Below are positions 58,963 to 62,560 of a stretch of 64,000 nt of DNA, one piece after another. Numbering within the stretch: the stretch's first letter is position 1; each line of letters begins with the position of its first letter. The notes below the pieces were generated by a model that was given only the letters and a program-made list of their open reading frames with translations, was not told where the DNA came from and did no database searches. Source of the stretch: Geobacillus subterraneus (lineage in GTDB: Bacteria; Bacillota; Bacilli; Bacillales; Anoxybacillaceae); the NCBI RefSeq assembly GCF_001618685.1, contig NZ_CP014342.1, forward strand, positions 930,001-994,000. The letters are read 5' to 3'. The translations under genes were made by a program, and so were the position numbers.

Positions 58963-59003
58963 AAAGGAGGGAAAGCCAAGGATAGGGCTTTTCCTCCTTT
59001 TTC
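58963..59003 (+). terminator. Terminator after ypeB
   Basis: GGAGGGAAAGCC / GGGCTTTTCCTCC with one mismatch, loop of 7, and T run. Confidence 0.88.
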
Positions 59004-59032
59004 ATTCCCACCGGTCTGGAGCGTGGGTTGTA

Positions 59033-59041
59033 TGGTATAAT
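59033..59041 (+). promoter_or_regulatory. Extended -10 promoter of ypfA
   Basis: TGGTATAAT, perfect extended -10, 73 nt before ypfA. Confidence 0.65.
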
Positions 59042-59114
59042 AGCCGTGTGAAACGATACGGGCCAGCGGCAAGCATAGATGATTCGCCAGCTGGCCGAAA
59101 AGGGGAAAAGCAAG

Positions 59115-59700
59115 ATGATGATGAAGATCGGGGATCGGGTTCGCCTCGAGCCGCTCGACGGTTCGACGCGGCAATACCGAAGCAAAACGCTCGCCATCGT
59201 TGACGGGGCGATCCATATTAGTTATCCTGTCGACGAACAGAGCGGAAAAACCGTGTATTTGTTAAACGGCATGCAATTTAAGGCGAGCTTTGTCGGCCAG
59301 GACGGGGGATTATACATGTTTGATACGGAAGTGAAAGGGAAAGTGCGCGACCCGTTGCCGATGGTCGTCTTGGCTTATCCGGGCGACGAAGATGTCATAC
59401 GCATCCAGCGCCGCCGATATGTGCGGGTGAAGGCAAACGTCGATGCGGCTGTCCATCCGCTTGACGGTGGATTCGCTCCGTTTGTGACGATGACGGTCGA
59501 TATGAGCGCCGGCGGAGCTGCGCTTCTCATCCCGCCGGCATGCGCTTCGCTTCTTCACCCCGGCATGGCGGTTGAGCTTTGGCTTGTGCTAACCATGCGC
59601 TCCGGTGAATATTACTATATGAAAACGAAAGCGACGATCGTCCGCATGACTACTGATGAGCGCGGCATTGCGAAAATGTCGGTTGAATTCACCGACCTCC
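59115..59700 (+). pseudogene. ypfA: PilZ-domain c-di-GMP receptor YpfA, 5' part, IS-interrupted
   Basis: Codes for about 195 residues of a YcgR-like N-terminal domain and a PilZ domain; c-di-GMP motifs RIQRRRYVRV (RxxxR) and DMSAGGAAL (D/NxSxxG) are intact. In B. subtilis YpfA (MotI/DgrA) brakes flagellar rotation when c-di-GMP is bound. The host frame ends at 59700 (EFTDL); what follows is IS110 sequence. The predicted hybrid protein would run on to 59996 with a meaningless 99-residue tail. ATG 59115 (three ATGs in tandem). Confidence 0.9.
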
Positions 59701-59898
59701 CTCTAGAAATGTTGATCTATCAAGGCTTTTCGGCCTCTCAGGGGTGTCCAAAAAATATTTTTCGACAAAATCCCTTACATCCTTTTTCAGTTTTGTGGAT
59801 ATCTTACAGACCTAGGGTGCGCTTCGCGGCCACGGCTGGTTATATTTTCCTGCCGCGGGGGGAAGCATATTCGATGCACCCTTTGGATCTCCGCGTCG

Positions 59899-59971
59899 CT
59901 GATGAGGACGAACCCTCCCATGTCTCCGGGCGTCTTCGCGCCAACATTCCCTCGTTCGGTCTCGTCATCAG
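59899..59971 (-). ncRNA. Candidate guide (seek/bridge) RNA hairpin of the IS110 element
   Basis: In the non-coding end downstream of the transposase, CTGATGA pairs with TCATCAG and, inside, GAAC with GTTC, ATGT with ACAT and GGCG with CGCC, forming a 73-nt stem with internal loops. IS1111-group elements carry their guide RNA in this position with a similar length. No promoter has been identified; this is a structural prediction. Confidence 0.45.
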
Positions 59972-60084
59972 GCGGAGGCCGGCCAAGCTCCTTTAGGGAC
60001 TCAAGGTCGAATGGATGAAATCACGCCAGCTTCTCCGGTGTCATCTCGTTGTCCAACGATTCTTCCGTTCGCAGGGGGGAGGCC

Positions 60085-61365
60085 TTAGGCCGCCCGTTGC
60101 ACCTGGGACAAGACGTCCTGTTTCATTCGCTCCGCGTCAAACGCTTGTTTCTTCGTACAAATCGCAAACAGCACATTCAACAGCTTCCGGCACAAGGCGA
60201 CGATGGACTGCTTTCCGGTCAGCGGATTGACGGATCGGGTCGTATAATACTCATGCAGCTCGCGAAACGCCTCGTTATGCCGAATCAGCGGAATCATCGC
60301 CCGAAACAGCACCGAGCGCAACCGTTTCCGTCCCCGTTTGGAGATGTGCTTTTGCCCTTTGCGCTGGCCGGAGGAGTTCTCCTTGAGCGTCAGGCCCGCC
60401 AACTTCACCAATTGGCGCGGGTCCCGATAATGGGCGAAGCTGCCGATCTCCGCCAGCAGATCGATGATCGTGGCGTCTCCCAACCCGTCGACCGTTTTCA
60501 ACCATTGGTACTCCATCGTCGTTTGAACCAATGCCTTCAACTCGGCGTCCAGTGCAGCGATCTCCGCCTCCAATTGGCGGTATCGGCGGACGAGCGCGGC
60601 GATCTCAAACCGGGCCATCGCTGTCCCTTCCGTCACCCCAATCGAGTCCTTCGCGGTGTTGATCAACGCCTGAATTTTGGCCTTCTGCGGGCATTTCATC
60701 CCTTCGCTTTGCCGGTACACCTCAAGAAGCTCCTCCACCGTCCGGCCGGCCATATCAGCCGGAAGCGGCGTCCACTCCAACACCGAAAGCGCCGTTTTCC
60801 CCAAGTCACGAAACACGGTCCAAAACTCTGGAAAATACCGATCCGTCCAGCGGACGATCGCGTTTTTCACCGCCGTCTGTTCCTTGCGGAGCTTCTCTTT
60901 GAGCGTGCTCCCCACGCGCAAATCGGCTTCAATCTCGTGCAGCAGCCGGGGAACGAGGAATCGTCCGTCTTTTGCCAGTCTGGCAATGACCAGGGCGTCT
61001 TTGGCGTCGTGTTTCGTCGGCAGGTTGTCATCAAGTTCTTTCGACCGGCACACATGCGCCGGGTTGACCATGACCAACGGGATCCCGTGCTCCTCGAGGA
61101 AGTAGGCCAGGTTCAACCAGTAGTGCCCGGTCGGCTCCACGGCGACGATCACCTCTGACTTCCCGAACGCTTGCATCGCCCCCTGAATCGCTTTATACAG
61201 CTGTTGAAACCCCTCTTTCGACTGGAAGATCGGGAACGATTTGCGAAGCACGCGCCCCCGGTCATCCACGAAGCAGGCGTAGTGGGTTCGTTTCGCGATA
61301 TCAATACCCACGACAAGCGTTTGTTCGGTTACTTGATCAATTTTATAGTTTTGTGTACAATTCAT
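60085..61365 (-). CDS. IS110-family transposase (DEDD recombinase)
   Basis: 426 residues from the ATG at 61365, with AAGGAGG 8 nt upstream; the longer frame to 61497 crosses the IS end. N-terminal RuvC-like DEDD domain: VVGIDIAKRTHYA, VAVEPTGHYW, TKHDAKDALVIARLAK. A coiled-coil middle and the C-terminal Tnp domain with GLGDATIIDLLAEIG, LAGLTLKENSSGQRKGQKHISKRG containing the catalytic Ser. The frame is intact, so the element may be active. Confidence 0.93.
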   Translation of the reverse strand: MNCTQNYKIDQVTEQTLVVGIDIAKRTHYACFVDDRGRVLRKSFPIFQSKEGFQQLYKAIQGAMQAFGKSEVIVAVEPTGHYWLNLAYFLEEHGIPLVMVNPAHVCRSKELDDNLPTKHDAKDALVIARLAKDGRFLVPRLLHEIEADLRVGSTLKEKLRKEQTAVKNAIVRWTDRYFPEFWTVFRDLGKTALSVLEWTPLPADMAGRTVEELLEVYRQSEGMKCPQKAKIQALINTAKDSIGVTEGTAMARFEIAALVRRYRQLEAEIAALDAELKALVQTTMEYQWLKTVDGLGDATIIDLLAEIGSFAHYRDPRQLVKLAGLTLKENSSGQRKGQKHISKRGRKRLRSVLFRAMIPLIRHNEAFRELHEYYTTRSVNPLTGKQSIVALCRKLLNVLFAICTKKQAFDAERMKQDVLSQVQRAA

Positions 61366-61372
61366 CTGAAGT

Positions 61373-61432
61373 CCTCCTTGGTATGGTGAGTGATGTGGTT
61401 GATACCCCTGCATCATACCAAGAGGGCTTTTT
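61373..61432. other. Hairpin covering the transposase ribosome site; terminator on + strand
   Basis: CCTCCTTGGTATG (61373-61385) pairs with CATACCAAGAGG (61414-61425, one bulge). On the minus strand it hides the AAGGAGG of the transposase; on the plus strand it is followed by seven T residues and should stop transcripts from ypfA. Confidence 0.75.
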
Positions 61433-61472
61433 TTGATCAAGTCCCCGGAAAAGCTCCTAACGGGAATGCTCC

Positions 61473-61558
61473 TTCCCCAAGACCGCGCCCGGCTCATCCG
61501 CTACAGTTTCGAGCGGCAGCTTGACGAAAAGAAAAGGGAAAACGAAGAGAATAAATGA
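61473..61558 (+). pseudogene. ypfA: YpfA, 3' part after the IS110 insertion
   Basis: Codes for the last 27 residues in the original frame (LPQDRARLIRYSFERQLDEK... to NK, stop TGA 61556-61558), matching the basic C-terminus of the B. subtilis protein. It has no start of its own. Confidence 0.85.
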
Positions 61559-61610
61559 GCGGGGCGTGTGGAATACTGCTAGAAAAAACGGAAGGCAGGA
61601 TGTTTGTGCC

Positions 61611-61790
61611 ATGAAGCGGATCGAGCAGCTGTTATGGAAGCTCGTTGTGATCCAAGCGATTTGTTTGCTGATCGCTCAATGGCTCGTGTTGTATACGCCG
61701 GTGGCGTTTTATATCGGCAAAGTGTACGAGTATGAAGGGGTAGCCAAGCCGGAAAAAACAGAAACGATTGAGACGGCCGTCGACCGTTGA
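61611..61790 (+). CDS. ypfB: Small membrane protein YpfB (DUF5359-like)
   Basis: 59 residues. One hydrophobic span (about 9-30) and the conserved LLIAQWLVLYTPVAFYIGKVYEYEGV stretch as in B. subtilis YpfB, which has the same neighbours. Function unknown. ATG 61611 follows GGCAGGA by about 10 nt; the longer open frame overlaps ypfA and is not needed. Confidence 0.82.
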   Translation: MKRIEQLLWKLVVIQAICLLIAQWLVLYTPVAFYIGKVYEYEGVAKPEKTETIETAVDR

Positions 61791-61799
61791 CGGCAAATA

Positions 61800-61808
61800 T
61801 GGTACAAT
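61800..61808 (+). promoter_or_regulatory. Extended -10 promoter before cmk
   Basis: TGGTACAAT, 78 nt before cmk, followed by a small terminator-like hairpin at 61821-61845. Confidence 0.55.
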
Positions 61809-61820
61809 GAACATGAGAAC

Positions 61821-61845
61821 ATGCAGGGTTTTCCTGCATTTTTCT
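61821..61845 (+). terminator. Terminator-like hairpin upstream of cmk
   Basis: ATGCAGG / CCTGCAT, 5-nt loop and a T run. It lies between the promoter and cmk, so it may attenuate cmk or end ypfB transcripts. Confidence 0.75.
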
Positions 61846-61885
61846 TTGTGCAGCCATTACATGATTCGATGAAGCAGGAGGAGTT

Positions 61886-62560
61886 ATGGAACGACGAATT
61901 AACATCGCGATCGATGGACCTGCGGCAGCAGGGAAAAGCACGGTCGCCAAACTCATTGCCAACCGCCTTTCGTATGTATACATCGATACCGGTGCGATGT
62001 ACCGCGCGTTAACGCACCGGGCGCTTCAATGCGGCGTCGACATCCATGATGAACAGGCGCTGTTGTCATTGCTCCGTGATACATCGATTGAACTGAAGCC
62101 GTCGCCGCACGGGCAATTGGTGTTTGTCAACGGCGAGGACGTCACCGATATCATTCGCGGAGAGGCGGTGACAAATGCGGTATCGTTCGTCGCGAAACAC
62201 CCGCTTGTGCGCGCGGAGATGGTCGCCCGCCAGCGCGCCCTGGCCGAAGGGGGAGGCGTTGTAATGGACGGGCGCGATATCGGGACGAACGTGCTTCCGA
62301 ATGCCGAGGTGAAAATTTTCTTAAAAGCCTCGGTCGAGGAGCGGGCGCGGCGTCGGCACGAAGAAAATATCGCCCGCGGCTTTCCATCTGACCTCGAAAA
62401 GCTGAAAGAAGAGATCGCCCGCCGCGACCGGATCGATTCAGAGCGGGAAACGGCGCCGCTTCGCAAGGCGCCGGACGCGGTGGAAATTGACACGACGTCG
62501 CTGACGGTCGAGGAAGTGGCGGCGCGCATTATGGAAATTGTCAACGAAAGGATTGGATGA
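61886..62560 (+). CDS. cmk: Cytidylate kinase
   Basis: Phosphorylates CMP and dCMP. 224 residues with P-loop [47 protein letters not shown] and the lid/RRHEE region. ATG 61886 after GCAGGAGG. Overlaps plsC by 4 bp (ATGA). Order cmk-plsC-rpsA-like is common in Bacillaceae. Confidence 0.96.

What the first reader, a model, noticed from the sequence alone, without database searches (positions are those of the whole stretch)
59701..60084. 384-bp non-coding end of the IS110 element may encode a guide RNA
IS110-family elements use a structured RNA to choose target and donor. Here the long non-coding end lies downstream of the transposase, as in the IS1111 group, and contains a 73-nt long hairpin (59899-59971). 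Its two facing internal loops contain CCTCCC and ATTCCC; the reconstructed target reads CCTCC then TTCCC across the insertion point, in the same order. Matches this short can be chance, but the arrangement is what a bipartite guide would show.
Basis: inference. Interest (0 to 1): 0.75.

Follow-up and report, generated by a model that had tools for sequence, protein, structure and literature searches.

The report
Mobile element RNA aims at Shine-Dalgarno sites
The non-coding end of this jumping gene appears to encode a structured guide RNA that steers it into the ribosome-binding sites in front of bacterial genes, and the element's own end restores the core of that site, so the gene behind it may stay translatable (not yet tested).

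Summary
Forty distinct sequences (about 49-100% transposase identity) share two hairpins with compensatory changes. The 73-nt hairpin (59899-59971) is best read as the DONOR loop: it matches the element's own ends and hardly changes while targets change. The TARGET loop lies just 5' of it in the RNA (59974-60036, minus strand), with a 5' guide GAUUUCAUCC and a 3' guide UAAAGGAG.

Over 85 unique insertion sites the 3' guide agrees with the left flank in 83, 81, 79 and 78 of 85 at the four bases next to the core; permuted guides never did as well (0 of 5000). Target class changes at least five times on the transposase tree.

The main target is AAAGG-AG-G, the Shine-Dalgarno sequence: 46 of 71 such sites precede a start codon with an open frame (control positions 11.6%). 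For three insertions 39 of 39 empty orthologous sites hold AAAGGAGG. In 57 of 71 the element's end restores GGAGG at the old spacing. Guide order and RNA position are IS1111-like; transposase length and lack of subterminal repeats are not. RNA expression is inferred.

The parts
59698..61470 (-). whole element in transposase sense, from AGCATTCCC (left end, 61470) to CTAGAGGGA (right end, 59698); the terminal A is shared with the target, core AG
   Evidence: common block of seven copies and flanks
60085..61365 (-). DEDD transposase, 426 aa (the longer open frame starts at 61497)
   Evidence: Pfam PF01548, PF02371; NCBIfam NF033542, 235.2 bits against cut-off 140; phmmer match to IS621, E 2.6e-12
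61412..61440 (-). promoter-like TTGATC-17-TATGAT in the left end
   Evidence: scan (3 promoter-like sites found in the region, 0.9 expected); TTGANN and TATGAT 16-18 apart in 85 of 86 left ends
61373..61379 (-). Shine-Dalgarno sequence AAGGAGG of the transposase gene itself
   Evidence: sequence
59698..60084 (-). non-coding right end that carries the guide RNA
59974..60036 (-). target-binding hairpin: outer stem 60025-60036 with 59974-59983
60013..60022 (-). 5' guide GAUUUCAUCC, pairs with the right half of the target (transposase sense)
   Evidence: covariation with right flanks
59988..59995 (-). 3' guide UAAAGGAG, same letters as the left half of the target plus core AG
   Evidence: agreement 83, 81, 79, 78, 61 of 85 at -1 to -5
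59943..59951 (-). 5' donor guide GGGAAUGUU, pairs with the left end AGCATTCCC (one G-U)
   Evidence: sequence and covariation
59915..59919 (-). 3' donor guide GGGAG, same letters as the right end GGGAG
   Evidence: sequence
59694..59699 (.). right junction with the target (GACCTC on +, i.e. GAGGTC in transposase sense)
61471..61474 (-). left half of the target next to the element, AAGG

Best explanation
An IS110/IS1111-type insertion sequence whose downstream non-coding end gives a bridge (seeker) RNA of two hairpins. The first binds the target: its 5' guide pairs with the right half, its 3' guide (UAAAGGAG) stands for the left half plus the core AG. The second, the 73-nt hairpin, binds the joined ends of the excised element. 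The transposase recombines the two at the AG core (CT on the other strand) without duplicating bases. In this element and most relatives the target guide is set to the Shine-Dalgarno sequence AAAGGAGG. As the right end finishes GGGA, the gene behind it regains GGAGG at the old spacing, and a promoter in the left end could read through transposase and RNA into that gene. Shown here: conserved RNA structure, guide-target covariation, Shine-Dalgarno targets, empty sites, restored GGAGG. Inferred: RNA expression and processing, circle, strand exchange, read-through, advantage to the element.
For: Guide-flank agreement over 85 unique sites and permutations 0 of 5000 for both guides, per position; exact nine-letter pairing of the redirected 5' guide in L116 and L122, seven in L204, L205, L209; at least five changes of target class on a 46-row tree; structure with double-sided changes; donor loops shared by all target classes and following the left end (T with A 54, C with G 29, T with G 3 of 86); Shine-Dalgarno context 46 of 71 against 851 of 7345 control positions; 39 of 39 empty sites with AAAGGAGG; GGAGG restored in 57 of 71; NCBI names the family model 'IS110 family RNA-guided transposase'.
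Against: No RNA data. The 5' guide agrees weakly beyond +2 in SD-type elements (43, 33, 35, 34, 40, 29, 24 of 85 at +3 to +9). Some copies do not fit their guide well (L119, L110, L111, L097). Permutations ignore descent, and the donor covariation may rest on very few changes. One structure measure (pair types, 13 against 13.5 shuffled) gives no support, and one pair of the donor stem is open in 19 of 40. RNAalifold did not draw the three-pair apical stem of the target loop and drew the inner donor stem in another register. Of the sites with SD-type guides, 25 of 71 showed no start codon with an open frame of 50 codons at 4-12 bases, the window copy among them.
Confidence: 0.92

Rival explanations
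1. One reading: the two loops of the 73-nt hairpin are the target guide.
For: Short matches CCTCCC and ATTCCC to the window's own target; the hairpin is conserved.
Against: Its loops barely change across five target classes and match the element's own ends; the neighbouring loops do follow the target.
Confidence: 0.03
2. The transposase or the open state of translated or transcribed DNA, not an RNA, chooses Shine-Dalgarno sites, and the RNA letters are a coincidence or an imprint.
For: Most sites lie at real gene starts (46 of 71).
Against: AAGGAGG in the window precedes a start in 11 of 22 cases anyway; in redirected lineages RNA loops and flanks change together in both halves.
Confidence: 0.03
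3. The conserved end is an untranslated regulatory region (for example an attenuator), and UAAAGGAG in it is just a ribosome-binding site.
For: UAAAGGAG is itself an SD-like string.
Against: The same place reads CGGGGCAG, CCGAGGAG or GCAGGAG in elements with those targets; no Rfam family matched up to E 1.
Confidence: 0.02
4. AAGG is part of the element's end and not of the target, so there is no Shine-Dalgarno preference.
For: AAGG stands before AGCATT in many copies.
Against: 39 of 39 empty orthologous sites hold AAAGGAGG; the window's own empty orthologue has the full length; sequence before AGCATT differs between copies of one element.
Confidence: 0.01

Closest known systems
IS1111-type elements with seekRNA (ISEc11, ISPa11, ISKpn4; PMC11187229, parts 1-5 of 9 read)
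   Same: RNA downstream of the transposase gene; strand order of the two target matches (top-strand complement before bottom-strand match); no target duplication; natural redirection by change of the guide.
   Different: No subterminal inverted repeats of 11-13 bases found; transposase 426 aa against 330-350; target is a Shine-Dalgarno sequence; a donor loop is proposed here from sequence.
IS621 bridge RNA, IS110 group (PMC11208160 section 12 and passages; PMC11208158 passages)
   Same: Target loop followed by donor loop, each with two guides around a stem-loop; core CT on one strand with a nearly invariant T; catalytic domain and C-terminal Tnp domain match.
   Different: RNA on the other side of the transposase gene; guide order reversed when ends are named by the gene's direction; different targets.
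IS900 of Mycobacterium avium subsp. paratuberculosis (PMC8141618, passages)
   Same: IS110 family; target motif CATGNNNNNNTCTCCTT is the reverse complement of a Shine-Dalgarno sequence with a start codon; few insertions in coding sequence.
   Different: Motif as printed has the start codon and runs the other way from the motif here; the passages read describe no guide RNA.

Membership tests
IS110 family in the wide sense (DEDD transposases) | RuvC-like DEDD domain plus C-terminal Transposase_20 domain | tested here: met
   Pfam PF01548 1.6e-31 and PF02371 7.4e-22; NCBIfam NF033542 above cut-off; aligned to IS621
IS110 family in the wide sense (DEDD transposases) | No target duplication, fixed orientation in a specific target | tested here: met
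   empty sites of nearest relative without indel for three insertions and same length for the window copy; all flanks of 86 rows read in one orientation
IS1111 group | subterminal inverted repeats, usually 11-13 bases (PMC11187229) | tested here: not met
   34 distinct end pairs: longest exact run 4-7, best 11-mer 7-9 of 11, no better than shuffles in the rows printed except L090 (6 of 60); the repeat finder shows none at the ends among the 25 of 33 pairs listed
IS1111 group | long non-coding region downstream of the transposase gene | tested here: met
   window and relatives
IS1111 group | top-strand complement precedes bottom-strand match in the RNA | tested here: met
   5' guide pairs with the right half, 3' guide has the letters of the left half
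IS1111 group | transposase of 330-350 aa | tested here: not met
   426 aa
IS110 group (strict) | long non-coding region upstream; bottom-strand match precedes top-strand complement | tested here: not met
   the paper notes some IS110-type members with a downstream region
bridge RNA / seekRNA systems | RNA with guides to both strands of the target that vary with it | tested here: met
bridge RNA / seekRNA systems | RNA is made and binds the transposase | not testable with these tools
   needs RNA sequencing of the purified complex
any named ISfinder element or subgroup | 95% identity to a listed element, or place in the ISfinder tree | not tested
   ISfinder is not on hand

The most novel reading that the evidence does not exclude
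A clade of RNA-guided insertion sequences has set its guide to the host's universal translation signal, while its more distant relatives aim at palindromic repeats. Very many gene starts become targets, and ends that rebuild the ribosome-binding site, with a promoter inside the element, let the downstream gene go on being expressed from a transcript that starts in the element: an expression-preserving insertion strategy written in the guide RNA.
Probability: 0.4. Interest if true: 0.75.

Novelty: new variant of a known kind. Interest (0 to 1): 0.62.

Why it matters
Bridge RNAs underlie a new class of programmable DNA recombinases. This clade offers natural guide-target pairs with at least five changes of target class, a layout that mixes IS110 and IS1111 features, and a direct way to test why some IS110-family elements sit at ribosome-binding sites. 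If the restored Shine-Dalgarno sequence and the internal promoter keep the downstream gene active, it is a clear case of a mobile element that limits harm to its host through its guide RNA.

Tried and rejected
First assignment of the right target guide to CCUCC (59974ff): dropped, because these letters form a stem with GGAG that varies as a stem does.

IS621-like order of the donor guides (GAGGGA for the right end, GGGAG for the left end): a weaker match, and against the covariation.

Mini-elements of about 250 bases in G007 (left end joined to right end, L133-L136): they looked like MITEs, but 4 joined pairs, 5 left-only and 5 right-only pieces all break at the same point about 127 bases in, one of them at a contig end (not every right-end piece in that genome does). 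This is what contigs of a 127-base k-mer assembly laid end to end would give. I treat it as a likely assembly artefact; no count uses these loci.

Rfam: nothing up to E 1 in 59000-62000. A start-codon preference beyond the motif: 46 of 71 against 11 of 22 AAGGAGG sites in the window (3 of 9 for AAAGGAGG, 17 of 42 for AGGAGG; random window positions 1735 of 11564), too little to claim.

Literature: ten searches; no listing or passage seen reports a guide RNA aimed at Shine-Dalgarno sequences. The library lacks most subscription journals.

Rows dropped: of 93 loci given to, 7 were skipped (L121, L130, L132, L210, L211 for ends; L212, L213 for the target-loop pattern); one duplicate site was merged, 85 remain. 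L210-L213 were looked at apart. The 14 loci of G007 fetched were not given. SD class and target classes are my assignments from guide and flank.

Full report
OBSERVATION. The window lies in a 3.47 Mb one-contig genome, by its relatives a Geobacillus (98.1% DNA identity over the element to a G. thermoleovorans plasmid; the 7 named genome loci are Geobacillus). A minus-strand IS110-family transposase is followed by about 390 non-coding bases. The genome holds seven copies of 1.78 kb. Their flanks put the ends at AGCATTCCC (61470) and CTAGAGGGA (59698). In transposase sense six of the seven copies have AGG on the left and GG on the right, followed after 6-11 bases by ATG, GTG or TTG with an open frame: the element sits inside Shine-Dalgarno sequences and points the same way as the gene. 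The window copy is the exception; it lies in a PilZ-domain coding sequence that runs the other way.

EMPTY SITES. For the window copy the unoccupied orthologue of the nearest relative (G005) has the same length across the point, with one base different from the window's target; none of the 13 unoccupied orthologues has the exact target. For three other insertions (L015, L017, L020), 13 unoccupied orthologues each, 39 of 39 hold AAAGGAGG at the point; the nearest relative shows no indel in all three, several others differ by 1-5 bases further upstream. So nothing is duplicated, and AAGG belongs to the target.

RELATIVES. I used 7 own copies, 46 loci from genus and family and 40 from the order: 93 loci. 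The searches: 13 of 14 genomes of the genus, 40 of 41 of the family (including distant matches), 84 of 397 of the order at E 1e-60 or better. The right end and a downstream non-coding region of 364-401 bases are kept in 40 of 40 order loci (43-70% identity), the usual left end in 36 of 40; L210-L213 have other left-end letters.

STRUCTURE. Forty distinct sequences (about 49-100% transposase identity) were aligned. RNAalifold on its own draws the outer stem of the target loop, the outer stem of the donor loop and the donor apical stem, with double-sided changes at four pairs (2, 19, 1 and 15 sequences); it does not draw the three-pair apical stem of the target loop and draws the inner donor stem in another register. 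In my model of 31 pairs 97.9% of cells pair (shuffled 95.2%, slid at most 47.9%), 38 cells have changes on both sides (shuffled mean 15.3, 0 of 500 as high; slid at most 3), 5 pairs have such changes (shuffled 2.6, 3 of 500). Further pair types give no support (13 against 13.5), and pair 100-147 is open in 19 of 40.

WHICH LOOP DOES WHAT. Mean column identity is 0.69 in the 5' and 0.82 in the 3' guide of the target loop, 0.95 in the donor loops, 0.93 in stems. Anchored on the core, the 3' guide agrees with the left flank at -1 to -6 in 83, 81, 79, 78, 61 and 25 of 85 unique sites; at -1 the pairs are G with G 72, A with A 7, C with C 4, two misses. Mean run 6.29 against 4.69 for permuted guides, 0 of 5000; for the 5' guide 3.24 against 2.56, 0 of 5000. 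By position the 5' guide agrees at +1 to +9 in 81, 70, 43, 33, 35, 34, 40, 29, 24 of 85; +2, +3, +5 and +7 exceed permutation clearly (2, 1, 77 and 8 of 5000), +4, +6, +8, +9 do not, and +1 hardly varies. Best cases: nine letters in L116 and L122 (AUUUUAUAC with GTATAAAAT), seven in L204, L205 and L209. Poor cases: L119, L110, L111 and L097. Permutation does not model descent, so I put target classes on a tree of 46 transposases: at least five changes, the AAGAAAG class at least twice (quick method).

The 73-nt hairpin is the donor loop. GGGAAUGUU pairs with the left end AGCATTCCC with one G-U, and its first base follows the left end (T with A 54, C with G 29, T with G 3 of 86 rows), though this may be few events. 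GGGAG equals the right end.

CORE. Donor GAGGG-AG-CATTCC and target AAAGG-AG-G share AG. On the other strand this is CT, the IS621 core, whose nearly invariant T corresponds to the shared A here. Written that way, the order left guide then right guide is the same as in IS621 for both loops, so the reversed order in IS1111-type RNAs may only reflect which end is called left. This is inference.

SHINE-DALGARNO TARGETS. Of unique sites of elements with an SD-type guide, 46 of 71 have a start codon 4-12 bases behind the motif with 50 or more open codons; control positions in the flanks of all 85 sites 851 of 7345; other guides 2 of 14. AAGGAGG in the window precedes such a start in 11 of 22 cases, so the motif alone can explain the location. 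The left flank ends AGG in 61 of 71, and the right flank begins GG in 57 of 71, so that the right end GGGA restores GGGAGG at the old distance. The left end has TTGANN and TATGAT 16-18 bases apart in 85 of 86 left ends. A simple scan saw no intrinsic terminator on the minus strand between the transposase stop and the right end, one weak candidate inside the transposase gene. That transcripts reach the gene is inferred.

OTHER TARGETS. More distant lineages lie in sequences of palindromic look: CTGCGGG..CCCGCAG-G-AGTCTC and variants (L209-L213), AACTA..GGGGCAGTTTAGTT (L202-L205), with guides to match. L109 shows a shifted register, AAAGAA-AG-GAGG before a start codon, with guides UAAGAAAG and CUCCUCC.

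KNOWN KINDS. Guide RNAs in both groups, their programmability and natural redirection are known (PMC11187229, parts 1-5 of 9 read; PMC11208160, section 12 and passages; PMC11208158, passages). IS900's motif is an SD plus start codon (PMC8141618, passages). This element mixes features: downstream RNA and guide order of IS1111, but a 426-aa transposase and no subterminal repeats. I file it in the IS110 family in the wide sense and in neither group, and call it a new variant of a known kind.

Noticed in passing
window 59079-59996 (+) and 61471 onward: The window copy interrupts a PilZ/YcgR-like gene near its 3' end; the PilZ domain is intact and the frame runs on into the element.
   Followed up: partly
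L133-L146 (G007): Left-end and right-end pieces of about 127 bases, some joined to 250-base 'mini-elements'; likely an assembly artefact.
   Followed up: yes
L020, L021 (own genome): Two of the seven copies carry a changed base in the 5' guide (CAUCG for CAUCC), opposite the first base after the shared A.
   Followed up: no
L109 (G010): Guide and target in a register shifted along the Shine-Dalgarno sequence (AAAGAA-AG-GAGG).
   Followed up: partly
L202-L205, L207-L213: Relatives with guides to other, palindromic-looking repeats; what these repeats are was not worked out.
   Followed up: partly
window 59739-59748 and 61401-61410: Ten-base inverted repeat (90%) well inside both ends (CAGGGGTATC / GACACCCCTG); close forms are seen in relatives.
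   Followed up: no
L041, L051, L053 and similar: Short pieces of the right end (34-76 bases) without the rest of the element in several genomes of the genus.
   Followed up: no
G017:C1 and G006:C1: Other IS110-family transposases (24-26% identity) in many copies; their targets and RNAs were not examined.
   Followed up: no
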